Virus record (IMG/VR): IMGVR_UViG_3300005340_000001
Span: 1 to 64,000 of that record
Length of the DNA: 64,000 nucleotides
Direction: 5' to 3' (one strand)
DNA from: a virus
Below the pieces are notes generated by a model, which was not told where the DNA came from, made no database searches, and saw only the letters and a program-made list of their open reading frames with translations. Both the position numbers and the translations under genes were made by a program. This document shows, piece by piece, positions 15,483-37,801 of the stretch (the first letter of the stretch is position 1; each line of letters begins with the position of its first letter).

Positions 15483-15865
15483 GCGCCGCCGCGGTCCCCG
15501 TCGTTGCCGAGCCGACCACAACCTTCGATCAGGAGGTCGAGTCGCGCCGGCACGACGGGGACGCGGACTACACCGGCTGGTTCTGCATTCGCACCGACCC
15601 GTTCCCATGTCCGGCCGCCGGCTGTAGCTTCGTCGCGAACTACATGACCGGAGCTCACCGCATCATCGTCTGGCCGGAGATCGACGACCCGCAGCTGCTT
15701 TCCGCGGCGCACAGCGCGAAGTCGGCTGGCCGCAATCCGCGCGTCGTCGGCTACGAGACCGCGCTCGGCCCGTGCATCGCGTGGGACGAGTTCGAGCGGC
15801 TGGGCCGGCCGGTGCACGGAAGAGCAGCGCGGCCGGATGGCTTCGAGCCGATGAGACGCCTGTGA
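15479..15865 (+). CDS. Protein with a zinc-finger-like segment
   Basis: A 128-residue protein. CPAAGCSFVANYMTGAHRI near residue 44 looks like a single C2H2-type finger. The rest is unrecognised. It is coupled to genes on both sides (GTGA overlaps). Confidence 0.55.
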   Translation: MSAAAVPVVAEPTTTFDQEVESRRHDGDADYTGWFCIRTDPFPCPAAGCSFVANYMTGAHRIIVWPEIDDPQLLSAAHSAKSAGRNPRVVGYETALGPCIAWDEFERLGRPVHGRAARPDGFEPMRRL

Positions 15866-17280
15866 CTGACCGTGTCATGGCGGGGATCGCGAGTATCCCC
15901 GAGCGCGCCGACTCGCTCGAGCGCGTGCTCGGGAGCATCGCACCCCAAGTCGACGAGGTGCATCTCTCGCTCAACGACTACACCGAGGCGCCAGCCTTCC
16001 TCGCCGACTTCCCGAACGTCCACGCGACCATCCGCCCGATCAACGGCGGAGACGCCGAGAAGTTCGCCGCAGTCGACAACTGGGACGGCTACGTCGCGAC
16101 GATCGACGACGACATCCTCTACCCGCCCGACTACATCGAGACGCTGATCGCCGGCATCGAGCGGTACGGCCGCTGCCGCGCGGTCAGCTTCCACGGCGGC
16201 ACCACGGCCGGCTACTCCACGAAGGTTCACGGCGCCGCGACCATCAAGCGGCTCCACTGCCTCGCCACGGTCGACGCCGACGACCTCGACGTCAACACGG
16301 TCGGCACGGGCGTTCTCGGCTGGCACACGGAGTGCGTACCGATCTGGCGAGACCTCTTCCGGACGCCGAACATGGCCGACGTCTACCTCTCCTGCCACGC
16401 ACACCGGACGGGGATCCCGCTCGCCGTGCTCGCGCACGAGAAGGGCTGGCTGGAATACATCCTGCCGGACGGCATGCGGACCATCTACGACAGCAACGCA
16501 GCCGGCGACGGCACCGTCTTTGACACGCGCGAGGACCGCCGGCGCGAGCTCGAGACGATCGACTGGACGCGGAATCCCCGGCGCCCTCGGATTCGCGTCT
16601 CGATCGCCACCTGCGAGCGTTCGCGCCTTCTTCCAGCTCTGCTCGAGGATCTCGAGTGCGAAGCGAACTGGGCCGATCTCGAGGTTGGCGTCTACGAAGA
16701 TCCGACTGAGGACGCGTACATCGACGCGCGCGCGATCGTTGACAAGAATGGCTGGACGTGGCGGCGCTTCGCGCGCCGGCAGGGCCGTGACAAGCACTGG
16801 GAGCTCGTCAGTCGCCAGTTCGCGGACTGCCGCTCGTCGCACGCCGACTGGTTCGTGTTCCTTCCCGACGACGTTCGTCTCACGCGGCACGCGCTGCCGC
16901 GTGCGATCGACACATGGCGTCGTCTTGAGAATCCGGCCGCGCTCACCCTGTGGCGGCTCCGTAATCACGAAGGGCAGATGAATTGGACGGGGCTGGTCCC
17001 GGTCGAGCAGGATCACGCGTTCGAGACGTTCCACGTTGACGGCATCTACCTATGCCGGCGCGACACGCTCGCTTTTTTCAATTACCAGTGCCCTCGGGTG
17101 CCGAACCTCCGCGGGCGCACCTCGAGCGGCGTCGGCCGCGTGATGTCCGTCGCGCTGCATCGCGCTAGAAGGCGCATGTACCGCGTCAAGCGCTCGCTCG
17201 CTGTCCCGGTCCCCGATGTCGCCAGCGTCATGAACCCGGACGCACAAGACCGGCTACACCCTCCGTGGGACCATCTGTGA
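15862..17280 (+). CDS. Tandem glycosyltransferase (two GT-A domains)
   Basis: A 472-residue protein with two glycosyltransferase-like domains. Domain 1 (residues about 1-235) starts with VMAGIASIPERADSLERVL and has ATIDDDILYPPDYIE near residue 80. Domain 2 (from about 248) starts with RIRVSIATCERSRLL and has WFVFLPDDVRLT near residue 332. Each has an acidic metal-binding motif. Two-domain enzymes of this type can build a disaccharide unit. GTG 15862 overlaps the upstream stop. Confidence 0.75.
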   Translation: MTDRVMAGIASIPERADSLERVLGSIAPQVDEVHLSLNDYTEAPAFLADFPNVHATIRPINGGDAEKFAAVDNWDGYVATIDDDILYPPDYIETLIAGIERYGRCRAVSFHGGTTAGYSTKVHGAATIKRLHCLATVDADDLDVNTVGTGVLGWHTECVPIWRDLFRTPNMADVYLSCHAHRTGIPLAVLAHEKGWLEYILPDGMRTIYDSNAAGDGTVFDTREDRRRELETIDWTRNPRRPRIRVSIATCERSRLLPALLEDLECEANWADLEVGVYEDPTEDAYIDARAIVDKNGWTWRRFARRQGRDKHWELVSRQFADCRSSHADWFVFLPDDVRLTRHALPRAIDTWRRLENPAALTLWRLRNHEGQMNWTGLVPVEQDHAFETFHVDGIYLCRRDTLAFFNYQCPRVPNLRGRTSSGVGRVMSVALHRARRRMYRVKRSLAVPVPDVASVMNPDAQDRLHPPWDHL

Positions 17281-18269
17281 CGCAGCTGCTTCTCAGTCCT
17301 CACAACGACGACGAGACGCTCTTCGCGTCGTACATCGCTCTGCGCGAGCGGCCGAAGGTCATCGTCTGCCTGCTCGGAGCTCGGAAGGCCAGCTACCCGC
17401 TGCCGACCGAACGGATCGCCGAGAGCGCCGCGGCGATGGACATCCTCGGGTGCGAGTTCGAGCAGCTGTGGTTCCCGTGCGACCCCGCGCCGTGGGATCT
17501 CGTCGCCCTATGGCTTCGGCAGGAGGAGCCCGAGCCCGACTGTGTCTGGGTGCCGACTCCGGAGCCGCGCGGCCACAGCCACCACAACAAACTCGCGCGC
17601 GTCGCGCACGAAGTCTGGCCTGGGAAGATCCGCTACTACACGACCTATCGGTGCGAAGAGAGCGGCTACCCGATCCGCACGACGCACGGCTTCCCGGTCG
17701 ACGTCGAGTGGGACGGCTGGCCGAACATGAAGCGAGCGGCGCTCTCCTGCTACCAGACGCAGATCCAGCGTGAAGGCACCCGTATGCACTTCGAGCGCGA
17801 CCTCGACGAGTACGAGATCGAGAGCCTCCGGCTCAACCTCGGCGGCGGGATCAACCCGATTCCCGGCTACGTCAACATCGACAAGTCGACCGGCTGGACG
17901 TTCGAGGACGGCCTTGGCGACTTTGCCTCCAGCAGCGTCGACGCGATCACCGAGTCGCACGCGCTGATGTACGTCGCGCTCGAGGAGTGGCCGGCCGTGT
18001 TCCATGAGATCGCGCGCGTTCTTCGGCCAGGAGGAACCGTCCGCATCACGCAGGACGCCATCGGCGGTCGCGGCTCGAGCCGCCCGAGGATTCGGCCGGG
18101 CGCGGCCGTCGCCACCACGCCCAAGCTCGTGCTCGAGCATCTCGCCGCGGCCGGAATCGAGGCCGGCGTCGTCGGCGAGGACGAGACGGCGTTCTCCGAT
18201 CGCAGCCTGATCCAGCAGAACTACGGCCATCCGCCCGACGTCTTTCACGTCGAGGGCGTGCGACCGTGA
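17277..18269 (+). CDS. LmbE-type deacetylase fused to a methyltransferase
   Basis: A 330-residue fusion. The N-terminal part has the PIG-L/LmbE zinc motifs PHNDDE (residues 8-13) and GHSHHN (99-104), which in known enzymes remove the N-acetyl group from a GlcNAc-linked sugar. From residue 187 a methyltransferase-like domain begins (LNLGGGINPIPGYVNID), with HEIARVLRPGGTVRITQD near residue 245. One protein could thus deacetylate and methylate the same sugar. It closes the sugar cluster. Confidence 0.8.
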   Translation: MTQLLLSPHNDDETLFASYIALRERPKVIVCLLGARKASYPLPTERIAESAAAMDILGCEFEQLWFPCDPAPWDLVALWLRQEEPEPDCVWVPTPEPRGHSHHNKLARVAHEVWPGKIRYYTTYRCEESGYPIRTTHGFPVDVEWDGWPNMKRAALSCYQTQIQREGTRMHFERDLDEYEIESLRLNLGGGINPIPGYVNIDKSTGWTFEDGLGDFASSSVDAITESHALMYVALEEWPAVFHEIARVLRPGGTVRITQDAIGGRGSSRPRIRPGAAVATTPKLVLEHLAAAGIEAGVVGEDETAFSDRSLIQQNYGHPPDVFHVEGVRP

Positions 18270-19820: not shown

Positions 19821-21863
19821 TTGGGCCTCTTCCGCCGCCGCCGTCGTTCGCCCGTGCCGCGCGCTCGCGTGGTGATGTCGCATCGCGTCGGCCCGACACA
19901 TGACGCGCTGAAGGCCGAGCTCGCTCTCGTCGAGAAGGACTTGCCGGAGTCCTATCGCGAGAACATGACCGCGGCCGGCGCGCTCGTCCGCCACGGACAG
20001 GCGACCTATCTGCGCCGCCTGATCATGCCGTGGCAGATCCGGGCGTTCGGCTACTTCGACCTCGTCGGCGAGTTCAAGTTCGCAGCGCAGTTCTACGCTC
20101 GAGCGCTCTCGCAGCTCTTGCTCTTCGCCGCGGAAAAGGACGAGAACGGCGACCTCATTCCGACGACGAACGAGCAGGTGATCGAGGCGTTCGAGCGGAT
20201 CAAGGATCCGGGCGGCATCGGCCGCACCGGGCTCCAGCGCGCCTACGGCTTGCTCGCGTTCCTCGTCGGCGAGGCCATCCTCTTCGTCTCGATCAACCCC
20301 GAGACGAATCAGGAGCAGTGGGAGATGCTCTCGACCGACGAGATCCGGCTGCTCGACGGCAACTACACGCGGTTCACGGCGCCGGTGATGCCGGCGACGC
20401 TCTTCCGCCCGGCGCCGGACGACTCATTCGAGCCGGTCGTCGACAAGGAAGGGAACAACCAGGGGCCCGCCGGCGTCGGCACCGCCGTCGCGTACCGGCT
20501 CCATCGGCCGCACCCGCGCTTCTCGGCACTGCCGGACTCCACGACCGAGGGCGTGCTCGACATCCTCGAGGAGCTCGTCCTTCTGACGCAGGTGATCCGC
20601 GCGCGGCTCCGCTCGAGACTCTGGACGGCCGGCTTCCTCTTCATCGACGACCGCATCACGACGCGACCCGACGAGCCGTCTCCGGACGAGGACATCCTCG
20701 AGGACCCGCTCATGGAGGACATGACCGAGGCGATCACGACGGCGATCGCCGACGAGGGCACCGCCGCCGCGGTGGCGCCGATCCTTCTGCGCGTGCGCGT
20801 CCCGGACGGGATGAAGCTCGCCGATCTCGTCTACCACATGCAGATCCAGGACCCGCTCCAGATTTACCCGGAGGTCGGCCTGCGCAACGAGGCGATTCGC
20901 CGGCTCGCGATCTCGCTCGATATGCCGGTCGAGGCGCTGCTCGGCTTCACCGACACGAACCACTGGAACGCCTGGATCATCGACGACCAGACGTGGCAGG
21001 CGCACATCCAGCCGGTCGCCGACGGATTCGTGGAGGACCTGACGGCCGCCTATCTCGGGCCGTACCTGCGCGAAGAGCTCAACATGGCCGACTGGGACAA
21101 GTACGTGATCGCGTACGACGCGACGAAGGTGATCAACCATCCCGACCGAACGAAGACCGCGATCCAGCTGCACGACAAGGCGGTCATCGGCGACGAGGCG
21201 CTTCGCCGCGAGACAGCTTTCAGCGAGGACGACGCGCCGACCAAGGACGAGAGGGCACGGATCGTCGGCATCGCGACGGGCGATTCGTCTCTCGCGTGGG
21301 ACGGCGTGCCGCGAGTCGGCGCCGGCTCGGTCGAGCCCACTCCGGGTGTCGTCTCGAACAGCGGGAACGAGCAGCCGGCCGGCGGGCCCGAGACCGGAGC
21401 GGAGGCCCAAACGGGACCGCCGGCCGGAGGCCAGGAGGCGGGCACCGAAACGATCGTCGGATCTCTCGGCACCACGATCGAAGGCGCGGCCGTCTATGCG
21501 CAGCTGCGCGCGCGCGAAGCCGCCGGCGCGCGCCTTCGGCAGCTCGCACGACGCGACGATGAAGCGCTCGCGCTGATCGACGGCAATCCGAACGGCCTTG
21601 TCGCGGCGAAACTCGGACGCACGACCGTCCGGCGGCTGCTCGGCGGCGCGCGCGAGCTCGAGCTCGTCTCCGCGACGCACGAGATCATGCTGGCCGTGCT
21701 CCGCGAGCTCGGCGTGCGCGACGACACCGCGGCCGAGTCCATCGCGGACACGATCGAGCGCCACGCCGCACGCACGCTCTATGACGAGCGGCCCGACCCG
21801 CTGCCGCCGACATTCGCCGCCAAGGTGGAGGGGCTCCTCGCGGCAGCGAAGAACGGGCGCTAA
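19821..21863 (+). CDS. Portal protein
   Basis: A 680-residue protein of the actinobacteriophage portal type. Typical stretches are RRLIMPWQIRAFGYFDLVGE near residue 70, AYGLLAFLVGEAILFV near residue 137, and NEAIRRLAISLDMPVEALLG with GFTDTNHWNAWIIDDQ near residue 375. The portal is the dodecameric ring at the head vertex through which DNA enters. The start is TTG 19821. The C-terminal 150 residues are a Gly/Pro-rich linker and a helical tail. The MuF gene follows, as usual. Confidence 0.88.
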   Translation: MGLFRRRRRSPVPRARVVMSHRVGPTHDALKAELALVEKDLPESYRENMTAAGALVRHGQATYLRRLIMPWQIRAFGYFDLVGEFKFAAQFYARALSQLLLFAAEKDENGDLIPTTNEQVIEAFERIKDPGGIGRTGLQRAYGLLAFLVGEAILFVSINPETNQEQWEMLSTDEIRLLDGNYTRFTAPVMPATLFRPAPDDSFEPVVDKEGNNQGPAGVGTAVAYRLHRPHPRFSALPDSTTEGVLDILEELVLLTQVIRARLRSRLWTAGFLFIDDRITTRPDEPSPDEDILEDPLMEDMTEAITTAIADEGTAAAVAPILLRVRVPDGMKLADLVYHMQIQDPLQIYPEVGLRNEAIRRLAISLDMPVEALLGFTDTNHWNAWIIDDQTWQAHIQPVADGFVEDLTAAYLGPYLREELNMADWDKYVIAYDATKVINHPDRTKTAIQLHDKAVIGDEALRRETAFSEDDAPTKDERARIVGIATGDSSLAWDGVPRVGAGSVEPTPGVVSNSGNEQPAGGPETGAEAQTGPPAGGQEAGTETIVGSLGTTIEGAAVYAQLRAREAAGARLRQLARRDDEALALIDGNPNGLVAAKLGRTTVRRLLGGARELELVSATHEIMLAVLRELGVRDDTAAESIADTIERHAARTLYDERPDPLPPTFAAKVEGLLAAAKNGR

Positions 21864-21866
21864 CCC

Positions 21867-24800
21867 ATGAGCGACCGCGAGTTGGTCTGGGCCGCGTGGG
21901 ATGGCCTGCGCGAGCCTGTGGGAGCCGCTGCTGCCACGATCGCCGACGGCGAGGGCGAACTGCCGCCGCTCGTGCACTACCGGGAGACGGCCAACCACGA
22001 CCGCGCGTGCGCGACGTGCTCGTTCTACGGCGCCGGCACGGCGATGCGCTGCGGCATGTTCGACACGCTGGTCTCCCCGGCGATGGTCTGCGACGAGTGG
22101 GCCGAAGGACTTCCGGGCGTGCTTCCGGAGCAGTGGCAGTGGAGCGACCTCGCCGAGGTGACGCCGCCGCTCGTCTCTGCGGCGCCCGGCGTCACGTCGC
22201 TCTCGACGATGATCGCGGTCAAGCCGCGGCCGCTCGAAGCTGAAGCGATCGCGGCGCCCGGCGGCGACCCTCCGGAGAACCTCCACGTCACGCTCGCGTA
22301 TCTCGGCGAGATCGAGGGCGAGCTCGAGCCGATCGTGGACGCGCTGCGCATCGTGGCAGCCACCCACGCGCCGCTCGAGGGCGTAATCGGCGGCTACGGC
22401 GCGTTCGACCCGCCCGGCGTCGGCATTCTGCTGCCCGACGTGCGCGGGCTCGTGGAGCTCCGCACCGACGTCTGCGAAGCGCTCATCGCGGCAGAGATCG
22501 ACTACTCGCACGACCACGGCTTCGAGGCGCATCTCACCGTCACCGACGTCGACGGCGAGCCGGCCGATGGCTACCCCGAGTCGGCTGTCGGCAACGCGCT
22601 CCACTTCGACGAGCTCCTCGTCGTCCGCGGCGACACCGAGATCATCGCGATCCCGTTCACCGGAGCGCTGCCGATCACCGCGGCCGCGCTCGTCGCCGCC
22701 GCCGAACCGTTCTGTCTCCCCGCGGAGCTGCGCGGCAAGACCGACCCGATCCGGCAGGCGTTCGTGAAGGCGGTCATGACGCCGGCGCTCGAGCAGGCCG
22801 GGCTCACCTGGGACATCACGAATCCGCTCGCGGCGGACGTCATCTCGAGAGCAGGCCAGCACATCGTCGGCATCTCGCGCACGACGCAGGACGACGTCAT
22901 GAACGTGATCAACTACGCGCACGAGCAGGGGTTGTCGGTTCCCGATACGGCGAAGGCGATCCGGGCGCACATGGCTGAGGCGAGCAACGTGCGCGCGACG
23001 ATGATCGCGCGAACCGAGCTCGCCGGCGCTGTGAACGGCGGCTCGCTCGCCGCGGCCAAGATCGCGGCCGATGTTGCCGGCGCGACGGCGACGAAGACGT
23101 GGATGACCGCGCCCGGCGCCACGTATCCGCGCCACGAGGACTACGAAGGCTTGGACGGCCAGACCGTTCAACTCGACGGGCTGTTCGACGTCGGCGGCGC
23201 CGAGCTCCGCTTCCCCGGCGACCCGGACGGCGAGGCCGGCGAGGTGATCAACTGCCGGTGCACGCTCGAGTACTCGGGCGAGCGGAAGAGCGACACCGCC
23301 GGCGACAACATCGACGCGGCCGGCGAGCAGCGCTTCTCGCTCGAGCATCACAACCGCGTTCTGCGTGCCGCCCACAAGCGCATCGACGACTTCGAGCCGA
23401 GGCTTGCCGCGATCTTGCAGCCGATCCTCGAGCGCGCCGGCGACATCGCCGCGCTCCGCTTCGAGCAGCTCGCGACGAACCATCTGACCGCGGCCGATGA
23501 TCCGGCCAATCCGGCCGGCTGGACGCCGCCGGCCGCAGAGGAGATCCTGCCGGTCAACTGCGAGGAGCTCACCGACGCCGGTGGGCTAACATCTGGTCAT
23601 GCAGAAGCCGGCATCAGGCCTCTCTCGGCACCTTCCGCCGGATCGGGACCCGGACGACCCGTCGTTTCCTTCGCCGAAACGACCGACTACGAGTCGTTCA
23701 ACTCCGCACTCGCAGAAAACGCCCGCCCCGGCTTCCTCACCGTCCACACCCCAGAAGAGCTAGCCCGGGACAAGGTCTTCATCTCGCCTGACGGCGAGTC
23801 CGGCTTCGTCGTCACGCCGGAGCACGACCTCCAGAACGTATTCCGCAATCCGGGCGGCATCAAGGGCGCCGGCCAGCAGGCCGTCCGCAAGGCGGTGCAG
23901 GAGGAAGGCGCGGCGACGCTCGACGCGTACGACGGCTTCCTGCCGGACATGTACGAGCAGGAGGGATTCCGGGTTGTCGGCCGGATGAAGTTCGTCGACG
24001 AGTACGCGCCGGAAGGTTGGAAGTTCGAGGAGTACGGCCGGCCCGACATCGTGTTCATGGCGCAGAACGCGCCGGCCGAGACCGAGGTGCGTCTGTTCAC
24101 TGACTGGGACGAAGCGAAGGCGTACGCGGCGTCGGTCGCTGGCGAGCCGATCCCGCCGGAGGTCCTCGATTCCGCGAAGGCGATGATCAGCGACGCGGCT
24201 GCGGCCGAGCCGGAAGTCACCGCCGAGCTCTCTGGCATCGCGGACACGGCCGGCGGAAAGATGGAAGGCCTCGAGAACGCCGTCAAGGAGAACCCCTCGC
24301 TCGTCCGCAAGATCACCGGCGACCTCGCCGACGCTCGGCTGGCTGATCCGAGCGCGACCGTCGCGGAGGTCTCGGCGTCGATCAACGACACGCTCCGCTA
24401 CACGATGACGTTCCCTGACGGCAGCTACGCGAACGGCGTCCAGACGACGCTCGCGCGGCTCGAGAAGGACGGCTACACGCAGATCAAGCTGAAGAACTAT
24501 TGGGGCAACGCCGACTACCAGGGGATCAACGGCGTATTCGAGAAGAACGGGCAGCGGTTCGAGCTCCAGTTCCACACGCCGCGGACGTTCGAGCTCAAGA
24601 CGTCGCTGCACCCGCAGTATCGCGCGTTCCAGCTGTCGACCGACCCGGCGGAGCGGCTTCGGCTGTGGAACGAGATGGCGGCCGAGCAGTCGAAGAATCC
24701 TGTCCCGGCTGGCGCGTTCGGCATCGGCCAGCGCGTGACGCATGATGCTCCGGTTGGCGCCGACGTCATGCGCGTCCTGAGGGTGCAGGACATCGTCCCG

Positions 24801-25778
24801 GGTGCGAACAATCTCACGATGGACCGCACGATGGAGAACATCAACTACGTCGCCGAGCGGCAAGCGCAGACGCAGGGCGGCAGATGGAAGATGATCGGTA
24901 CGCCCGAGGAGCGAGCGCAACGGCTTGAGGAGTGGAAGGCCGAAGCTCTCACGTCGATCAAGAAGGCCGTGGCCGACGCGCAGGTGCGCATCCGCGTCAC
25001 CACCGACACGCTCGAGAAGATCCTCAAGGAAGGCCGTTTCAAGAGTCAGTTCGAGACCGGCACGTCGAAGGGAATGCTCGACGCCGATCTGCGAGCTCGA
25101 GCCGAAGAGCGAATGTTCGGCTACCCGAAGAGCCTGCCGGACGAAGAGAGGCCGATCTACGGGTACCTCGCCGGCTCCGCCGACGAGACACACGGCGTCG
25201 AGCAGTACGGCGACCTGATCGTCAACCTCAAGCCGGAGACGAACGAACGGACGACGTTCTCGCTCATCGACTCGCTCGGACCGGGCCGAGACGGAGAGAT
25301 CATCCCCTCGCCGCTGAACGATCCGAGCCTGACTTCGTGGTGGGGCGGCGCGAACCCCGTCGAAGCGAACGGCGACGTCGCGGACATGACGTACGGCTCA
25401 TACGCCGAGGCGCAGATCCACGGCGGCGTCGCGCTCAGCGACATCGACCAGGTCATCTTCTCCGCCGAGCGCGAGCAGGAGCGCATCCAGGGCGCGACCG
25501 CGATGGCGAACATCATGCGCGACAACCTCGCCGAGAAGCAGCGAGAGCTCGACGCGCTACGCGAGGCCGTCAAGGGCACGTCGAACACGAGCGCACTCGC
25601 GGCGGCTGAGGACGCCGTCGCGCGAGCTCAAGAACAGGCGGACGAATGGCTCGCCCGTTCCGAGCAGACGATGATGGAGGGCACGCACCTCCGCGAGTTG
25701 CTCGACGAGCTCGAGATCCGCTGGCACATGGTCGACACGTACCGAGAGCTCGGCGGCGGCAACAGCCAGAACGACTAG
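21867..25778 (+). CDS. MuF minor head protein with multi-domain C-terminal effector
   Basis: A 1303-residue protein; MuF head proteins are usually 300-500. In order: a Cys-containing N-terminus (ACATCSFYGAG); a 2H phosphoesterase/LigT-like domain at about 110-260 with HVTLAYLG at 140 and HLTV at 222; the MuF/SPP1 gp7 domain at about 295-475, with TMIARTELAGAVNGG near 377 and CRC at 463-465; a GNAT-like domain at about 600-735 (MYEQEGFRVVGRMKF at 695); a RelA/SpoT-like nucleotidyltransferase domain at about 790-930 (INDTLRYT at 839, FELQFHT at 898); an unrecognised domain at about 1040-1215 (RFKSQFETGTS at 1057, RPIYGY at 1095); and a coiled-coil end. MuF proteins with toxic C-termini are a known phage class, delivered with the virion or made in lysogens. 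The stop shares CTAG with the convergent gene. Confidence 0.82.
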   Translation: MSDRELVWAAWDGLREPVGAAAATIADGEGELPPLVHYRETANHDRACATCSFYGAGTAMRCGMFDTLVSPAMVCDEWAEGLPGVLPEQWQWSDLAEVTPPLVSAAPGVTSLSTMIAVKPRPLEAEAIAAPGGDPPENLHVTLAYLGEIEGELEPIVDALRIVAATHAPLEGVIGGYGAFDPPGVGILLPDVRGLVELRTDVCEALIAAEIDYSHDHGFEAHLTVTDVDGEPADGYPESAVGNALHFDELLVVRGDTEIIAIPFTGALPITAAALVAAAEPFCLPAELRGKTDPIRQAFVKAVMTPALEQAGLTWDITNPLAADVISRAGQHIVGISRTTQDDVMNVINYAHEQGLSVPDTAKAIRAHMAEASNVRATMIARTELAGAVNGGSLAAAKIAADVAGATATKTWMTAPGATYPRHEDYEGLDGQTVQLDGLFDVGGAELRFPGDPDGEAGEVINCRCTLEYSGERKSDTAGDNIDAAGEQRFSLEHHNRVLRAAHKRIDDFEPRLAAILQPILERAGDIAALRFEQLATNHLTAADDPANPAGWTPPAAEEILPVNCEELTDAGGLTSGHAEAGIRPLSAPSAGSGPGRPVVSFAETTDYESFNSALAENARPGFLTVHTPEELARDKVFISPDGESGFVVTPEHDLQNVFRNPGGIKGAGQQAVRKAVQEEGAATLDAYDGFLPDMYEQEGFRVVGRMKFVDEYAPEGWKFEEYGRPDIVFMAQNAPAETEVRLFTDWDEAKAYAASVAGEPIPPEVLDSAKAMISDAAAAEPEVTAELSGIADTAGGKMEGLENAVKENPSLVRKITGDLADARLADPSATVAEVSASINDTLRYTMTFPDGSYANGVQTTLARLEKDGYTQIKLKNYWGNADYQGINGVFEKNGQRFELQFHTPRTFELKTSLHPQYRAFQLSTDPAERLRLWNEMAAEQSKNPVPAGAFGIGQRVTHDAPVGADVMRVLRVQDIVPGANNLTMDRTMENINYVAERQAQTQGGRWKMIGTPEERAQRLEEWKAEALTSIKKAVADAQVRIRVTTDTLEKILKEGRFKSQFETGTSKGMLDADLRARAEERMFGYPKSLPDEERPIYGYLAGSADETHGVEQYGDLIVNLKPETNERTTFSLIDSLGPGRDGEIIPSPLNDPSLTSWWGGANPVEANGDVADMTYGSYAEAQIHGGVALSDIDQVIFSAEREQERIQGATAMANIMRDNLAEKQRELDALREAVKGTSNTSALAAAEDAVARAQEQADEWLARSEQTMMEGTHLRELLDELEIRWHMVDTYRELGGGNSQND

Positions 25779-26029
25779 GCCGCCGGCAGCAGCGCGGCGA
25801 CGCGCTCACGGACAGTCTCAAGCAGCTCGTCCGGCGCTGTCGGCTCGTCCCAGCCGGGCGAGTGCGCGGTGATCGCGCCGATCGCCGTCGGCTCGCCGAG
25901 GAAGTCAGTCACGACGTCGTAGACCCGCGCCGCCGGCAGACCAGCATTCGGCTCGCCGTCCGCGACCTTCCCCGCGTCTACGAGGAACCGCGTCGGCCCC
26001 TGCTGTCCGATGATCTTGAGCTCAGCCAA
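25775..26029 (-). CDS. Small hypothetical protein, end of reverse operon
   Basis: An 84-residue protein starting at TTG 26029, overlapping the previous stop by 8 bases. It has an N-terminal strand (LAELKIIGQQGPTRFLVDAG) and an acidic helical end. Its stop meets the MuF effector stop tail to tail. It could be an immunity partner for that effector, but only its position suggests this. Confidence 0.5.
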   Translation of the reverse strand: MAELKIIGQQGPTRFLVDAGKVADGEPNAGLPAARVYDVVTDFLGEPTAIGAITAHSPGWDEPTAPDELLETVRERVAALLPAA

Positions 26030-26315
26030 CTGCGAGGTCCTCGCGCGGCCACTGGAGGCCGCCGCCGATCGACGTCGCCGAGCGCTGCGCGCCGGCGAGA
26101 TCGGTCTGCTCGAGGAAGCCGGCATCCTGGAACCGCGTCAGGAGTTGCGGCCGATCGACCCAGCCGTTCGCCGTGAGCAGCTGAATGTCGGGCCCGTTCC
26201 GACGCACGACCAGCCGCGGCGAGCCGTCCTCGTTCGTCACGGTGAAGTAGTTCCACTGCGCGGTCTCCATCGCTGCGAAGCCTAGCGCCGTGGTCATCTC
26301 GAGCTCCTCGATCAT
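26022..26315 (-). CDS. Small hypothetical protein
   Basis: A 97-residue protein of the reverse operon. WNYFTVTNEDGSPRLVVRRN near residue 20 suggests a small beta-sheet domain; the C-terminus has LLTRFQDAGFLEQTDL. The start overlaps the upstream stop by 4 bases. No family is recognised. Confidence 0.55.
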   Translation of the reverse strand: MIEELEMTTALGFAAMETAQWNYFTVTNEDGSPRLVVRRNGPDIQLLTANGWVDRPQLLTRFQDAGFLEQTDLAGAQRSATSIGGGLQWPREDLAVG

Positions 26316-26518
26316 GGCGCTGCTCCGTACGGGCGCGGGATGACGCCCGCGGGCGCCCGGTGGACCTTCACCTTGCAGCGCGGCGAGAGGTCGTTGGCTC
26401 GGACCATGAACTCGACCTCTGCTCCGCAATCCGGGCACGCACCTTTGGCGGAGATCCACTGCTCGGACGTGACGGAGCGCTCCGCGCCGGATGCCGTGCA
26501 TCGCACGCCGGCGGCCAC
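26312..26518 (-). CDS. Small zinc-ribbon-like protein
   Basis: A 68-residue protein from GTG 26518 (sharing a base with the upstream TAG). CPDCGAEVEFMVRANDLSPRC is half of a zinc ribbon. Function unknown. Confidence 0.5.
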   Translation of the reverse strand: MAAGVRCTASGAERSVTSEQWISAKGACPDCGAEVEFMVRANDLSPRCKVKVHRAPAGVIPRPYGAAP

Positions 26519-27012
26519 TAGAGCCCCGGATCCGCGTCGGATGTGACGGTGAAGCCGTCGAAAGCGCCGCCGATCTCCGCCGGCTCGCGCTCGCTGTAGT
26601 ACGACCTCCGGGCCCGCTCGAGCCCGGCATGGAAGTCGCGGCCGCCGGCGTCGTGGCAGACGCATCCGCACGGCCGCGTGGCGCTGTAGACGAGCGGCGC
26701 GACGTATCCGTGGCACTCGTCATGCTGGCCGTGCACGCAGTTGACGGTGACCGAATTGGGTCCGGCGATCGCTCGAGCAAGAGATCGCCGCGTGAGATCG
26801 CGCTGCTCGCCGAGACCGACTCCGCGCCACTCGACGGCCGTCGACTGCCACGCGGGGCTCACGAGCGCAACGATCGGCGTGCAACCGCCGTCGCCGCTCG
26901 TGAATATCTGGCCCTCGTCCGAGCCGAGCGCCATCTCCGCGAGCTCGCGCTCCACGAACGGGCCCATGTCGTCGTTCTCGTACTCGATCCAGAAGTACTC
27001 CGCGGCCGTCAC
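26518..27012 (-). CDS. Hypothetical protein with Cys/His cluster
   Basis: A 164-residue protein. GTG 27012 is chosen because it overlaps the DUF3560 stop (GTGA). The N-terminus is acidic (YFWIEYENDDMGPFVERELAE); a NCVHGQHDECHGY stretch followed by RPCGCVCHDAG near residues 100-135 probably binds zinc. No family is recognised. Part of the reverse operon. Confidence 0.55.
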   Translation of the reverse strand: MTAAEYFWIEYENDDMGPFVERELAEMALGSDEGQIFTSGDGGCTPIVALVSPAWQSTAVEWRGVGLGEQRDLTRRSLARAIAGPNSVTVNCVHGQHDECHGYVAPLVYSATRPCGCVCHDAGGRDFHAGLERARRSYYSEREPAEIGGAFDGFTVTSDADPGL

Positions 27013-27698
27013 GACTCGTCCTTTGCCGGGCAAGTCGCGTGCGTCGCTTCGCGCGTGAGACGGAACCAGACGATCTGCTCGCCGCGGCTGATCTCTCCGC
27101 CGCAGTCGGCGCAGGTGCCCGGGTACCGGGACTCCATCTGCCGGCCGTGGCCGCGATCGCCTGCGGCGACCATCGCCTTCTCGCGCTCGAGCCGGTCGGC
27201 GCGCTGCCGCGCGTCTCGGATTCGAGCTCCGAGGTTCGTGAGCGAGTAGGTCGGATACGGAACTGCCTGCGACCGCTCGTAGGGCGTCATCGCGGCGAGC
27301 TCGGCCTTGTGCTCCTTCCGGTACTCGGCGTTCGCACGCTTCCGCTCGTCGCGCTGCGCCTCGAGCCGGTCGGCCTTCGCGCGCAGCTGCTCGACCGCGT
27401 CCTCGTCGTCATCGAAGATCGCGACCTCGAGTTGCCGCTCGATGCTGTCCGCGGCCGCTGCGTGGCGCTCGGCCTTCGCGCCCTCTTCGATGCTCCGGCT
27501 CGCGAGCGTCTGCATCCGCTCGACGTCGCGGCGAGCTCTCCGCTCCGAGTGATGGCCGACGAGAATCGGCTGGCCCATCGGAATGCGATCGCCGATCGCG
27601 TGCTCCGCTTCGTACGCGGCGTCTGATCGCGCGCTGGCACTTCCTGCCCAGTCGCGCCTCTTCTCGGCTCTACGCTCGAGCCTCTCTCTGCGTGTCAT
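27009..27698 (-). CDS. DUF3560 domain protein
   Basis: A 229-residue protein. Its opening (ERLERRAEKRRDWAGSA) and GDRIPMGQPILVGHHSERR, RARRDVERM are diagnostic of DUF3560, a family carried by plasmids, conjugative elements and some phages. A long charged coiled-coil follows and the C-terminus has a CADCGGEISRGEQI zinc pair. A GGGAGA ribosome site and an AT-rich promoter element (27725-27738) precede it. The molecular function is unknown. Confidence 0.75.
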   Translation of the reverse strand: MTRRERLERRAEKRRDWAGSASARSDAAYEAEHAIGDRIPMGQPILVGHHSERRARRDVERMQTLASRSIEEGAKAERHAAAADSIERQLEVAIFDDDEDAVEQLRAKADRLEAQRDERKRANAEYRKEHKAELAAMTPYERSQAVPYPTYSLTNLGARIRDARQRADRLEREKAMVAAGDRGHGRQMESRYPGTCADCGGEISRGEQIVWFRLTREATHATCPAKDES

Positions 27699-27724
27699 GC
27701 GGTCTCCCTTCCGCTAGTGATGAC

Positions 27725-27738
27725 GGTATAAATATATC
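27725..27738 (-). promoter_or_regulatory. AT-rich dyad, reverse promoter or operator
   Basis: GGTATA-AA-TATATC on the plus strand; on the minus strand it reads GATATATTTATACC, 27 nt before ATG 27698. It contains good -10 hexamers in a very GC-rich genome and is almost palindromic. Related elements occur at 29634, 35799 and 61074. Confidence 0.55.
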
Positions 27739-27750
27739 AGGACGTGCGGC

Positions 27751-28275
27751 TTACCGATACGCCTTGCGCCGGCCGAGCTCCGCCACGCGCGCGTTCGCTT
27801 CGGCCGCGGTTGGCATGTCCACGATCGGCTCCTCGCCGCGCGCGCGAGCTCGAGCTCCGGCTTGCCGCAGAGCTGTCAGCGCCGGATCGTCGGTCTCGTC
27901 GATCTCCCAGACGTCGGCGAAGATCGGGATCAGCGACTCGCCGCCGTCGATGATGTAGACGCGGACGACGCAGTTGCGATAGTTCCCCTCGATGCCGTAG
28001 AAGCCGGGGTACCAGCCGTCGTCGTCGCCGGTCGCGCCGGGCCGCTCAAGCGATCCGATCGCGATCGCGCTCACCTTCGGGATGGCGAGCTCGCTGATCG
28101 CAGCCTTGATCGCCTCGCCGGGCATGAAGCCGACCGTCAGCGGCCGGCCGATCGGAACGCTCTGCCACTCGAGGCTTTCGGCTTCGCTGCTCGCCGCGTC
28201 GCGGCCGCCGATCCGCTCGACAACCTCGGCGCCGACGTTCGTCCAGTCGCGTCTAGCTTGTTCGATGACGCTCAT
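27751..28275 (-). CDS. Hypothetical protein
   Basis: A 174-residue soluble protein. ATG 28275 overlaps the upstream stop by ATGA. DGWYPGFYGIEGNYRNCVVR and a VYIIDGGESLIPIFADVWE strand pair near residue 110 suggest a mixed alpha/beta fold. Not recognised. It is the last gene before the second promoter of the reverse operon. Confidence 0.55.
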   Translation of the reverse strand: MSVIEQARRDWTNVGAEVVERIGGRDAASSEAESLEWQSVPIGRPLTVGFMPGEAIKAAISELAIPKVSAIAIGSLERPGATGDDDGWYPGFYGIEGNYRNCVVRVYIIDGGESLIPIFADVWEIDETDDPALTALRQAGARARARGEEPIVDMPTAAEANARVAELGRRKAYR

Positions 28276-28988
28276 GATGCGACCGCATCGGTCGAGCAGT
28301 CGCCGCCCTGCCGATAGCTCGTGAACTGGTGAAAGACCGTCGAGAGCCGCTCCGTGTCGGTCTCGACCATGTGGTACAGCCTCCCGTCGCTCCAGTCGAC
28401 TTTCAGCGGGACTAGCTGATCCCACGTGGAATAGCTTCCCGTCGGGTCGCCGAGGTCGCGGCCGAGGATCTCGCCGAATGCGGCGAAGATCGCTGCCTTC
28501 CATTCGGGCGACGTCTCCCGCTGGGTCATGATGTGATCGGCGCCGATCGAGACCAGCTCCGAGTTCGGCGTCGGCGCGCTGCCGTAGACCTCTTCCAGCG
28601 TCGAGCCCTGGCCGCCGGCGTAAGCGATGCTCACTGTGCCGTCCGGATTGAGCCAGTGCCGGTTGTACGTCTTGAGGTCGATCATCGAGTCGAAGCGCGA
28701 GCCCGCGAAGACGGCGGTCACGTCGTCAACCTGCTTCGTGGTCGGCCCGTCGATCCAGTCGATGCTGATGCTCGAGCCGCCGGAATACCGGCTACTCCTG
28801 ACCGTGAACTTCTGGCCCGGGAACGCCTTCTTCAGCTGCGCCCGAATCAGCTTCGCGGTCTCTGGATCGTCCAGGCGTCTCGGCGAGACGATCTGGAGCT
28901 CTTCCGTGCTGGTCAAGCGCGGCGGCTCGAGCGGCTGCCTTCTCGTCTGCCGTGTGCGCGACCCGAACGAGCGAGTCGGGATCGACAC
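28272..28988 (-). CDS. LPD29-like domain protein (second frame)
   Basis: The frame carries a clear LPD29-type (large polyvalent protein associated) domain: AKLIRAQLKKAFPGQKFTVR, RYSGGSSISIDWIDGPTTKQV and a DDVTAVFAGSRFD helix, then NRHWLNPDG. Such domains are found in polyvalent proteins of phages and conjugative elements. The first 25 residues from ATG 28988 look random; natural sequence starts near LTSTEELQIV (nt 28918). It is therefore probably the C-terminal part of the zinc-finger gene just upstream, joined by a frameshift. Confidence 0.7.
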   Translation of the reverse strand: MSIPTRSFGSRTRQTRRQPLEPPRLTSTEELQIVSPRRLDDPETAKLIRAQLKKAFPGQKFTVRSSRYSGGSSISIDWIDGPTTKQVDDVTAVFAGSRFDSMIDLKTYNRHWLNPDGTVSIAYAGGQGSTLEEVYGSAPTPNSELVSIGADHIMTQRETSPEWKAAIFAAFGEILGRDLGDPTGSYSTWDQLVPLKVDWSDGRLYHMVETDTERLSTVFHQFTSYRQGGDCSTDAVAS

Positions 28989-29406
28989 CGGCAGCGCTGT
29001 ATCCGTTGCACTGATAGCCCCAGCGCTCGTTCGCTTCGTAGTCGAAGTCGACCACCCGCGAGCCGAACTCCATCTCGCCGGTGTCGCGGCCGACCTTCTC
29101 GATCGTGGCCCATCCGCCGCCCGAGAAGCCGGGGATGCCGGCGTACCGGATGCGATCGCCGGGTTGCAGATCGCGGACTCGCTTCGAGAGGAGCTCGGTC
29201 AGCTTCGCCGCGGCAGCGGCGCCGCGCTTCGTGTACGTCCAGCCGCGGCCGCCGCACTTGAAGCAGCGGTCCTGCGTGAAAGCGTTGTAGGAATACCGGC
29301 CGCTTCCGCCACAGCGCGAACACGTCTGGACCTCGAAGATCGAGGTCTGCGGGTTCCGCGCGTCGGCGAACGCCGCTGCGGTGTTCTCGAGCTCGATGGC
29401 GCTCAT
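28792..29406 (-). CDS. Zinc-finger protein, probably N-terminal part of the LPD29 gene
   Basis: The first 160 residues look real: CSRCGGSGRYSYNAF and DRCFKCGGRGW form a DnaJ-type zinc finger, followed by KLTELLSKRVRDLQPGDRI and a beta-rich region. After about RVAHTADEKAAARAAA (nt 28925) the frame becomes the shadow of the LPD29 frame. Both frames joined near 28920 would give one protein of about 375 residues, the usual order for such proteins. Start ATG 29406 overlaps the upstream stop. Confidence 0.65.
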   Translation of the reverse strand: MSAIELENTAAAFADARNPQTSIFEVQTCSRCGGSGRYSYNAFTQDRCFKCGGRGWTYTKRGAAAAAKLTELLSKRVRDLQPGDRIRYAGIPGFSGGGWATIEKVGRDTGEMEFGSRVVDFDYEANERWGYQCNGYSAAGVDPDSLVRVAHTADEKAAARAAALDQHGRAPDRLAETPGRSRDREADSGAAEEGVPGPEVHGQE

Positions 29407-29606
29407 CAGAGGCCGTACGAGACGGCGAGCGCCTCGCTCTCCTCGATGCCGGCCTCAGCGATGCAGGCGTTGGCGATGCAGACCTCCGACTCGAACCGCT
29501 CCGCGGTCAGATGATCGAGCGTTCCGAACTCGAGCCGCATCCACGCTTCGACATGGCGCGGATCGCTCGTCGTGAGGCTCTCGATGGCTCTTGCGTAGTA
29601 ACTCAT
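29406..29606 (-). CDS. Small plasmid-type conserved protein
   Basis: A 66-residue protein (MSYYARAIESLTTSDPRHVE) with EAWMRLEFGTLDHLTAERF. It resembles a small protein common on actinobacterial plasmids and integrative elements. First gene of the reverse operon, with a GGGAGA site and an AT-rich promoter element upstream. Confidence 0.6.
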   Translation of the reverse strand: MSYYARAIESLTTSDPRHVEAWMRLEFGTLDHLTAERFESEVCIANACIAEAGIEESEALAVSYGL

Positions 29607-35965: not shown

Positions 35966-37801
35966 GTGGACGAGAACGAGATTTTCGCAGAGGTGCCAGA
36001 GGACCTCGCGAGCATCGACGACGAGGCGCTTGCCGGTCTCATCGCCGACTACACGGAGCAGACGGACGCCGTGCTCGCCGAGCCGGCAAGGTTCGTCGCC
36101 GAGTCCGGGATGTCCGCCGCCGAGCTGATCGAGGCGACGCGCGGCGCGCTCGAGACGCTCCGCGAGCTCAAGGCGTTGCAGGCGCAGCGCTTGCTCACGC
36201 CCGAGGACGAGGCCGCGTTCGCGGCGCTCGCCGACTTCGAGACCTCCGCGGATGCCGGTGACGGCGGCGGAGACGGCGCGGATGGCGGTGACGGCGGCGA
36301 CGCCGACGCCGGCGATGGCGCCGAGGACGGAGCCGGTGATGGCGACGGAGATGGCGACGGCGACGGTGCCGACGACCAGCTGACGGCCGCGGGTGCGCCG
36401 GTCGGCGGTCGGCGGTCGCTTCCGCGCCCGTCGGCAGGCCATTCGCTCCTCGAGGCGGAGCTCCAGGCTCCGCGCGCGGTCGGCTTCGTGGCCGGCGGCG
36501 GCGCGACGAACGTCGCCCCCGGCGTCGAGTTCGGCAGCGAGCTCCAGCTCGCGCAGGCGCTCATTCGGCGCCACGAGACGCTCGTCTCGCTCGACCGCTC
36601 GGCGGCTCGGGGGACGCCGACCGAGAAGTACATCGTCGCGGTCGCCGACTGGAACGACGAGTACCCGGCCGAGCGGCGTCTCGGGCAGGCCGACATCGAG
36701 GGCAACTGGTCACTGATCCGCGAAGTGGTCAAGCCGTCGGCGATCAAGCGCGCCATGCGCGACCGCATCGCGCAGCAGGACCGGAGCCTCGGCCTGACCG
36801 CGTCCGGCGAGGAGCTCACGATGACCGCGTCCGGTGGTCTCTGTGCTCCGGTGACGCCGTACTACAACCTCGCGTACATCTCGGTCCCGGTGCGGCCCGT
36901 GATGGGATCGCTGCCGTCGTTCTCGGCGGATCGCGGCGGTCTCCGCTACGCGCGGCCGGCATCGCTCGGCGCCGTCACGGACGGCATCGGGCTCATCACC
37001 GAGGCCGAGGACGCCGCAGGCGGGACGTCCGCGGCGAAGTCGTGTCAGACGATCCCGTGCCCGCCGTTCGAGGAGACGGACGTCGACATCATCTACCACT
37101 GCCTCGAGTTCGGGAACCTCGGCGCTCGCGCCTTCCCGGAGCTCGTCGCGCAGTGGAACAACCTCGTGCTGGCCGCGCACGCGCGGCTTGCCGAGTCGAA
37201 CCTGCTCACCCTGATCGACGCCGCGTCGAGCCAGGTCACGGCGGGCTCGTTCGGCCTCGGGGCGTCGGCGACGCTCTTCTCGCAGATCCTCGCCGCGGCG
37301 AACGGTCTGCGGAACCGCAACCGCATGGATCCGGAGGCCGTCCTGCGGCTGATGATCCCGTGGTGGGCGGTCGACCTCATCGTCTCGGACGTCATCCGCA
37401 CGCAGTTCCAGCGGTTCGACACCGATCAGGCGAAGGTCACGGCGCTCCTGCGCTCGTTCAACATCGAGCCGACCTTCTACATCGACGGCGCGAACGGCCG
37501 CAACCAGGTCTTCGGCACTCAGGGCGACGGCGATCTCCTGCCGTTCCCGGAGACGGTGACGTGGTACCTCTTCCCGGAGGGGTCTTTCCTCTACCTCGAC
37601 GCGGGGATGCTCGAGCTCGGAATCGTCCGCGACTCCGTGCTCAACGCTCAGAACAACTTCCAGCTCTTCGGTGAGACGTTCGAGAGCGTCGCATTCGTCG
37701 GCGTCGAGTCGCTCGCCGTCGAGTCGTGGGTCTGCGACAGCGGCACGGTGTCGCTGCCGGCGGAGGTCACCTGCCCGATCAGCTACGCCGGAAGCGAATA
37801 G
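35966..37801 (+). CDS. Major capsid protein with fused scaffold region
   Basis: A 611-residue protein from GTG 35966 (AAGGAGG site). Residues 1-90 are helical and acidic (scaffold-like, with EATRGALETLRELKALQAQR); residues 96-133 are a Gly/Asp linker; the HK97-type capsid part follows from about 155, with GGLCAPVTPYYNLAYISVPV, RPASLGAVTDGIG and a long GNLGARAFPELVAQW region. Fusing scaffold to capsid is known in HK97-like phages; the maturation protease upstream would remove the scaffold part. Confidence 0.82.
   Translation: MDENEIFAEVPEDLASIDDEALAGLIADYTEQTDAVLAEPARFVAESGMSAAELIEATRGALETLRELKALQAQRLLTPEDEAAFAALADFETSADAGDGGGDGADGGDGGDADAGDGAEDGAGDGDGDGDGDGADDQLTAAGAPVGGRRSLPRPSAGHSLLEAELQAPRAVGFVAGGGATNVAPGVEFGSELQLAQALIRRHETLVSLDRSAARGTPTEKYIVAVADWNDEYPAERRLGQADIEGNWSLIREVVKPSAIKRAMRDRIAQQDRSLGLTASGEELTMTASGGLCAPVTPYYNLAYISVPVRPVMGSLPSFSADRGGLRYARPASLGAVTDGIGLITEAEDAAGGTSAAKSCQTIPCPPFEETDVDIIYHCLEFGNLGARAFPELVAQWNNLVLAAHARLAESNLLTLIDAASSQVTAGSFGLGASATLFSQILAAANGLRNRNRMDPEAVLRLMIPWWAVDLIVSDVIRTQFQRFDTDQAKVTALLRSFNIEPTFYIDGANGRNQVFGTQGDGDLLPFPETVTWYLFPEGSFLYLDAGMLELGIVRDSVLNAQNNFQLFGETFESVAFVGVESLAVESWVCDSGTVSLPAEVTCPISYAGSE

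What the first reader, a model, noticed from the sequence alone, without database searches (positions are those of the whole stretch)
21867..25778. Giant MuF head protein carrying several enzyme-like domains: candidate virion-borne effector
Beyond the normal MuF domain the protein has an upstream 2H/LigT-like domain and, downstream, GNAT-like, RelA/SpoT-like and an unrecognised conserved-looking domain, 1303 residues in all. MuF proteins with C-terminal toxins are established; this particular stack of several activities in one head protein looks new to me. It may be injected with DNA or released at lysis to change the host or kill competitors.
Basis: partly seen in the sequence, partly recalled or inferred. 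Interest (0 to 1): 0.85.

Follow-up and report, generated by a model that had tools for sequence, protein, structure and literature searches.

The report
Phage head protein carrying four enzymes
A virus of bacteria builds a 1303-residue head protein that carries four different enzyme domains with their catalytic residues in place, apparently a multi-tool injected with the viral DNA; the principle is known, but this set is new, and its last domain belongs to the same family as a Salmonella effector, which has apparently not been linked to phages before.

Summary
Observation confirmed: 21867-25778 is one intact 1303-aa gene behind the portal gene of a 96,219-bp phage record. Order: 4-Cys motif, 2H phosphoesterase (HVT140/HLT222 intact), MuF, GNAT, RelA/SpoT-type (RSH) synthetase, C-terminal ADP-ribosyltransferase (ART). 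The GNAT fold was confirmed (AlphaFold pLDDT 94.9; Foldseek hits all GNATs). The RSH domain is homologous to Apk2 MuF toxins and the exported synthetase SaEAS, with all motif residues kept. A relative contig has the same GNAT-RSH-ART order, its frame broken between RSH and ART. RSH and ART also share a polypeptide in three other phage lineages, and a DUF3626 ART forms the C-terminus of 26 of 26 MuF-ART fusions found. Injected multi-enzyme 'polyvalent proteins', including 2H-MuF and RelA-MuF, were described in 2017, so this is a new variant of a known kind. No integrase or adjacent immunity gene was found; an Aph1-like (p)ppApp hydrolase lies 57 kb away, but controls show this is not diagnostic. 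Best reading: a virion-carried effector injected with DNA. Delivery and activities are untested.

The parts
21867..25778 (+). Giant MuF head protein gene, 1303 aa
   Evidence: Intact ORF with the top coding score in the record and uniform codon-position GC
22008..22100 (+). N-terminal 4-Cys motif (residues 48-78), metal- or Fe-S-like
   Evidence: Regular expression; similar motifs lie upstream of RSH domains in L029, L030, L037 and in other phage ORFs
22200..22676 (+). 2H phosphoesterase (LigT-like) domain, residues 112-270, motifs HVT140 and HLT222
   Evidence: Pfam 2_5_RNA_ligase2 E=1e-8; alignment with the 2H part of actinophage capsid proteases
22839..23321 (+). MuF head-morphogenesis domain, residues 325-485
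   Evidence: phrog_2468 E=3e-36; Pfam Phage_Mu_F E=3e-6
23634..24146 (+). GNAT acetyltransferase-type domain (residues 590-760 modelled), CoA-loop-like GIKGAG, invariant Tyr696
   Evidence: AlphaFold with 43 sequences: pLDDT 94.9, pTM 0.88; Foldseek best hits all GNATs, TM about 0.5
24159..24722 (+). RelA/SpoT-type small alarmone synthetase domain, residues 765-952, Apk2/EAS-like
   Evidence: PDB 8vx3 E=3.6e-17; all phage tblastn hits are in Streptococcus and Pasteurellaceae phages, mostly annotated as head proteins (MuF-Apk2 type); syn-motif residues conserved
24864..25775 (+). DUF3626 / SopF-like ADP-ribosyltransferase domain, residues about 1000-1303
   Evidence: Pfam DUF3626 E=5e-11; profile hit to SopF structures 7dn8/7dn9; E1181, Y1098, R1076, G1115 conserved
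25485..25712 (+). Coiled-coil-like insertion inside the ART, before its last strand (residues about 1207-1282)
   Evidence: Alignment with other ART C-termini
19821..21863 (+). Portal protein gene
   Evidence: phrog_776 E=2.4e-85
25775..26125 (-). Small gene on the opposite strand downstream, conserved in a relative; no family
   Evidence: 59% identical in L018; no Pfam or PHROG hit
27009..27698 (-). DUF3560 protein
   Evidence: Pfam E=2.5e-28; 74% identical in L018
28272..28988 (-). LPD29 (large polyvalent protein-associated domain 29) protein
   Evidence: Pfam E=1e-23; 68% identical in L018
29750..32497 (+). Large head-cassette protein, probably carrying the head maturation protease
   Evidence: phrog_859 E=1e-83; phrog_18402 (head maturation protease) E=1e-47
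35966..37801 (+). Major capsid protein
   Evidence: phrog_777 E=2e-66

Best explanation
It is a minor head protein of a tailed phage, attached through its MuF domain near the portal, that doubles as a multi-enzyme effector ('polyvalent protein'). A few copies per virion would be ejected with the DNA. Once in the cytoplasm, the RSH domain makes (p)ppApp and/or (p)ppGpp from ATP, the SopF-like ART transfers ADP-ribose from NAD+ to a host target, the GNAT acetylates a target, and the 2H domain cleaves or repairs RNA ends or destroys cyclic or 2'-5' nucleotide alarm signals. Together this would disarm host signalling and metabolism in the first minutes of infection. Shown: the gene, domain order, homologies, conserved catalytic residues, GNAT fold, head-gene context, recurrence of the RSH+ART pairing. 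Inferred: packaging, injection, each activity, targets, and any later reversal by the phage's own Aph1-like hydrolase.
For: Head cassette: portal, MuF protein, protease, capsid. 2H motifs HVT140/HLT222 intact. GNAT fold, CoA-like loop and invariant Tyr. RSH: homology to SaEAS and Apk2, motif residues 93-100% conserved in 63 relatives. ART: homology to SopF, an ADP-ribosyltransferase with an I-Y-E triad; E1181, R1076, G1115 conserved. RSH+ART share a polypeptide in three further lineages; other giant MuF proteins end in the same ART after other enzymes, e.g. MuF + ADPrib_exo_Tox + DUF3626. The GNAT family sits mostly in giant phage proteins. Dose is plausible: SaEAS makes about 100,000 alarmones per minute, so 1-3 copies could use an amount comparable to a cell's few million ATP (own estimate) in roughly ten minutes. 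Literature precedent: PMC5512222, PMC9503650.
Against: No direct evidence of packaging or injection. No confident structure model of the RSH or ART domains in this protein (the single-sequence model failed). The Glu/Gln conservation counts are partly biased, because those motifs were used to find the loci. Only one close relative, a contig that starts inside the GNAT and whose frame is broken between RSH and ART, so the 2H-MuF end has no independent confirmation. Enzyme targets are unknown.
Confidence: 0.7

Rival explanations
1. It is a MuF polymorphic toxin in the narrow sense: C-terminal toxin domains carried by phage particles to inhibit competing bacteria, with lysogens protected by immunity proteins.
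For: MuF N-terminal to toxin-type domains homologous to Apk2tox and an ART. An Aph1-like HD hydrolase with the four metal-ligand positions is encoded at contig 82488-82844; best solved-structure hit 7smg, a (p)ppApp hydrolase, E=8e-4.
Against: No immunity gene next to the gene: no HD_4 hit in the record and no IapK homologue. No tyrosine integrase or large serine recombinase. No close relative in 84,980 bacterial and archaeal species genomes. The unlinked hydrolase is nearly as common in control phages (2 of 40) as in other unlinked-RSH phages (3 of 33).
Confidence: 0.15
2. It is a pre-packaged counter-defence protein: the main job of 2H, ART, GNAT and RSH is to destroy or pre-empt host anti-phage signalling (cyclic oligonucleotides, CRISPR-linked nucleotides, NAD-based systems) rather than to poison metabolism.
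For: 2H domains fused to MuF or portal proteins are proposed to degrade defence nucleotides (PMC5512222; PMC9503650); the phage anti-CBASS nuclease Acb1 is a 2H-type enzyme (PMC9117128, listed; fold from own knowledge).
Against: No defence target was identified. RSH and ART domains of these families are known as toxins or effectors rather than as nucleotide scavengers.
Confidence: 0.3
3. The extra domains are worn-down or purely structural additions without catalysis.
For: Head proteins accumulate fusions; the RSH-ART frame is broken in the only close relative.
Against: Both 2H HxT motifs, the GNAT CoA-like loop and Tyr, all RSH motifs and the ART Tyr/Glu positions are intact; the motif regions are the most strictly kept parts in the 69% identical relative.
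Confidence: 0.08
4. The long gene is an assembly chimera of unrelated genes.
For: Metagenome-derived virus record; the full stack was seen only once.
Against: Uniform coding signal, single uninterrupted frame, conserved GNAT-RSH-ART order and downstream gene order in L018, standard portal-MuF position.
Confidence: 0.03

Closest known systems
Polyvalent proteins (Iyer et al. 2017, PMC5512222)
   Same: Several disparate enzyme domains in one phage protein with virion structural domains; 2H-MuF, RelA-MuF, GNAT and ART are listed there
   Different: This combination of 2H-MuF-GNAT-RSH-ART was not found elsewhere; the ART is of the DUF3626/SopF type, whereas the paper's polyvalent ARTs are of its Tox-ART-HYD2 clade
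Apk2 MuF toxins (S. pneumoniae, Mannheimia, Pasteurella prophages; PMC12226406)
   Same: MuF plus a homologous alarmone-synthetase domain with the same motifs (32-35% identity to the phage examples compared)
   Different: Apk2 is about 500-600 aa, ends with the synthetase and is followed by iapK and aph1; here the synthetase is internal, an ART follows, and neither gene is adjacent
Exported alarmone synthetases (SaEAS, PDB 8vx3; PMC12691689)
   Same: Homologous RSH domain, E=3.6e-17
   Different: SaEAS is secreted by its signal peptide; here the domain is in a phage head protein
SopF (Salmonella effector, DUF3626; PDB 7dn8/7dn9)
   Same: Same Pfam family; conserved Tyr and Glu positions of the ART active site
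   Different: SopF is a type III effector activated by host ARF; the phage domain has a coiled-coil-like insertion and an unknown, presumably bacterial, target
MuF-DUF3626 minor head proteins (TP901-1 ORF33, MissE2; and Tierra gp9, a VG15-DUF3626 fusion)
   Same: Head protein with the same ART family in its C-terminal part
   Different: One recognised extra domain only, 560-730 aa
T4 Alt
   Same: Working analogy: a head-packaged, injected ADP-ribosyltransferase
   Different: Different ART clade; no MuF, RSH, GNAT or 2H

Membership tests
Polyvalent protein | At least two domains of disparate biochemical activity in one polypeptide | tested here: met
   2H, GNAT, RSH and ART identified
Polyvalent protein | Virion structural domain or late-gene context | tested here: met
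   MuF domain; portal, protease and capsid genes around it
Polyvalent protein | Injected with DNA | not testable with these tools
   Needs virion proteomics or an injection assay
Apk2 (MuF adenosine 3'-pyrophosphokinase) | MuF plus (p)ppApp-synthetase-type domain with syn motifs | tested here: met
Apk2 (MuF adenosine 3'-pyrophosphokinase) | Synthetase is the C-terminal domain | tested here: not met
   An ART follows it
Apk2 (MuF adenosine 3'-pyrophosphokinase) | Adjacent iapK and aph1 immunity genes | tested here: not met
   No IapK homologue in the record; the only Aph1-like gene is 57 kb away
Apk2 (MuF adenosine 3'-pyrophosphokinase) | Makes (p)ppApp only | not testable with these tools
   Needs an enzyme assay
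MuF polymorphic toxin (Jamet 2017) | Encoded by temperate phages | tested here: not met
   No PF00589 or PF07508 match in the 96-kb record, which may be incomplete
DUF3626/SopF-type ART | Sequence family membership | tested here: met
   Pfam E=5e-11, above cut-off; profiles of phage relatives find SopF
DUF3626/SopF-type ART | Catalytic Tyr and Glu of the I-Y-E triad | tested here: met
   Y1098 and E1181 align with the conserved Tyr and Glu motif positions; the Ile position was not assigned and SopF residue numbers were not checked
DUF3626/SopF-type ART | ART fold | tested here: inconclusive
   Only a failed single-sequence model; homology alone supports it
GNAT superfamily | GNAT fold | tested here: met
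   Model pLDDT 94.9; Foldseek top hits all GNATs
2H phosphoesterase | Two HxT motifs | tested here: met
   HVT140 and HLT222

The most novel reading that the evidence does not exclude
DUF3626 ADP-ribosyltransferases, known so far from the Salmonella effector SopF, are a widespread C-terminal warhead of phage head proteins, often coupled to an alarmone synthetase. The phage would inject an 'ATP and NAD' double strike in one molecule and later undo the alarmone part with its own hydrolase, and the type III effector family would descend from phage-carried proteins.
Probability: 0.3. Interest if true: 0.8.

Novelty: new variant of a known kind. Interest (0 to 1): 0.62.

Why it matters
It is an unusually complete example of a multi-enzyme head protein in a phage that appears not to be temperate, and each enzyme can be tested on its own. 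It also makes the open question of what MuF-borne enzymes do at the start of infection directly testable.

Tried and rejected
Single-sequence AlphaFold of residues 596-1303: pLDDT 40, useless. A composite alignment of all three C-terminal domains mis-aligned (about 10% identity) and was dropped. Search with the full protein or the ART alone in viral contigs found nothing; alignment A1 was too divergent to search with. Genome contigs: no relative. HD_4 search found no hydrolase, but a profile of Apk2-linked Aph1 proteins did. The idea that this hydrolase is a dedicated antidote was weakened by the control: 3 of 33 other RSH-bearing records against 2 of 40 control records. CteC, considered from memory as the 7dn8 protein, was rejected: 7dn8/7dn9 are SopF. 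Assembly chimera and degenerate-domain readings were considered and judged unlikely.
Full report
What is there. Position 21867-25778 (+) is a single intact gene of 1303 codons starting with ATG just after the stop of the portal gene. The window is part of a 96,219-bp virus record. The gene has the best codon-model score in the record, keeps the same G+C pattern by codon position along its length, and a chance open frame of this size has a probability of about 4e-13. Portal, protease and major capsid genes lie around it, so it belongs to the head cassette.

Domains. Residues 48-78 hold a 4-Cys motif that recurs in other phage ORFs, three times upstream of RSH domains. Residues 112-270 are a 2H phosphoesterase with both HxT motifs; the same kind of domain is fused to capsid proteases of Arthrobacter and Microbacterium phages. 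Residues 325-485 are MuF. Residues 590-760 are GNAT: sequence searches gave only weak GNAT hits, but an alignment of 43 relatives gave an AlphaFold model with pLDDT 94.9 and pTM 0.88, and Foldseek found GNATs in all top places (best E=1.7e-5, TM about 0.5). The CoA-loop-like GIKGAG and the invariant Tyr696 fit an active GNAT.

The RSH domain. Residues 765-952 match the solved SaSAS structure 8vx3 at E=3.6e-17, which is the exported alarmone synthetase SaEAS of Streptomyces albidoflavus (PMC12691689). In phages, the hits are all in Streptococcus and Pasteurellaceae phages, in proteins of the Apk2 type, whose domain makes (p)ppApp and is toxic in E. coli (PMC12226406). Motif residues K807, K815, D841, R844, E899 and Q901 are present in all of 63 relatives; D841, E899 and Q901 lie in the search patterns, so their counts are biased, but they are also invariant in the BLAST-found set.

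The unrecognised domain. It is DUF3626 (Pfam E=5e-11). A profile of eight BLAST-found phage relatives finds two solved chains, 7dn8 and 7dn9, at E=6e-10 and 9e-9; a second, larger profile finds the same two only. They are SopF with ARF1 (PMC10333799), an ADP-ribosyltransferase with an I-Y-E triad. Y1098 and E1181 align with the conserved Tyr and Glu. The domain extends to the C-terminus, with a coiled-coil-like insertion before its last strand. A mycobacteriophage gene with this domain is annotated 'capsid maturation protease and ADP-ribosyltransferase'.

Relatives. L018, an 8-kb viral contig, starts inside the GNAT and is 69% identical through GNAT and RSH; the ART follows at 41%, but in another frame, so the frame is broken between RSH and ART in that contig. 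Three downstream minus-strand genes are conserved at 59-74%. Searches with domain alignments gave 252, 211 and 72 relatives of RSH, ART and GNAT (80, 78 and 71 loci kept). RSH and ART occur in one polypeptide in three other deep lineages: 2.5-2.9-kaa giants, L150, and L140, a MuF-RSH-RSH-ART protein of 1474 aa. In 26 of 26 MuF-ART fusions the ART ends within 27 residues of the C-terminus; some carry a second ART or a kinase-like domain between. The GNAT family lies mostly in giant phage ORFs, once with a 2H domain, and in several with an RSH domain. No other protein with 2H, MuF, GNAT, RSH and ART together was found, although only the best 80 hits of a search were kept.

Immunity and lifestyle. 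No HD_4 family member, IapK homologue, tyrosine integrase or large serine recombinase was found in the record. A profile of Apk2-linked Aph1 hydrolases does find a 118-aa protein at contig 82488-82844, outside the window (E about 8e-10 with a three-sequence profile that excludes it). Its best solved relative is a (p)ppApp hydrolase (7smg, E=8e-4); its phage relatives include the Aph1 genes beside Apk2; the His, His-Asp and Asp metal-ligand positions are kept, but the usual first helix is missing. As a control, 3 of 33 other phage records with unlinked RSH domains have such a gene, against 2 of 40 records with ART or GNAT but no RSH, so presence alone does not prove an antidote role.

Mechanism. 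MuF proteins are thought to be present in two or three copies in the head and to bind DNA (PMC12226406). The best-supported reading is that this one rides in the head and enters the cell with DNA, as T4 Alt does (PMC5512222). At about 100,000 turnovers per minute for the related SaEAS, a few molecules could convert an amount of nucleotide comparable to the ATP pool within about ten minutes (own estimate of pool size). Injection, activity and targets are inferred.

What is known and what is new. Iyer et al. 2017 described polyvalent proteins and named 2H-MuF and RelA-MuF fusions; Jamet et al. 2017 described MuF toxins in temperate phages. This protein is therefore a new variant of a known kind. 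New here, as far as the held literature shows, are the five-part combination, the recurrent RSH+ART pairing, and the link between phage head proteins and the SopF family: the survey of viral NAD-ADP-ribose systems has no mention of DUF3626 or SopF, and a text search for SopF with bacteriophage and ADP-ribosyltransferase found one paper, in which each term occurs once and which was not read. Papers outside that library were not searched.

Noticed in passing
contig position 82488-82844 of the same record (L004:3488-3841), outside the window: Aph1-like (p)ppApp-hydrolase-type HD protein without the usual first helix, unlinked to the MuF gene
   Followed up: yes
L015:1963-3657, L014:1756-3666, L013:1318-2097, L002:2628-4811: DUF3626 (SopF-family) ART domains in TP901-1 ORF33, Streptococcus phage MissE2, D29 gp2 and Tierra gp9
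   Followed up: partly
L120:1981-6600, L143:2182-6621, L155:1990-6573: Other giant MuF proteins (about 1500 aa) with a second ART or a PI3/PI4-kinase-like match plus SAP/HeH/Rho_N-type domains before the C-terminal DUF3626 ART
   Followed up: partly
L140:2182-6603: MuF protein with two RSH-type stretches and a C-terminal ART (1474 aa)
   Followed up: partly
L008:1189-3591: Aaphi23 head protein shows a Pfam intein-splicing match (below its cut-off) spanning residues 272-751, between MuF and the Apk2 domain
   Followed up: no
window 22008-22100: 4-Cys motif CATC-C-CDEW that recurs in other phage ORFs and upstream of RSH domains in L029, L030 and L037
   Followed up: partly
window 25775-29606: Minus-strand gene island with DUF3560 and LPD29 proteins inside the head cassette, order kept in L018
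   Followed up: partly
window 32498-33736: AAA ATPase with a DUF5925 match between the protease-type and capsid genes
   Followed up: no
window 15772-18269: Glycosyltransferase-2-like and PIG-L/methyltransferase-like genes upstream of the portal gene
   Followed up: no
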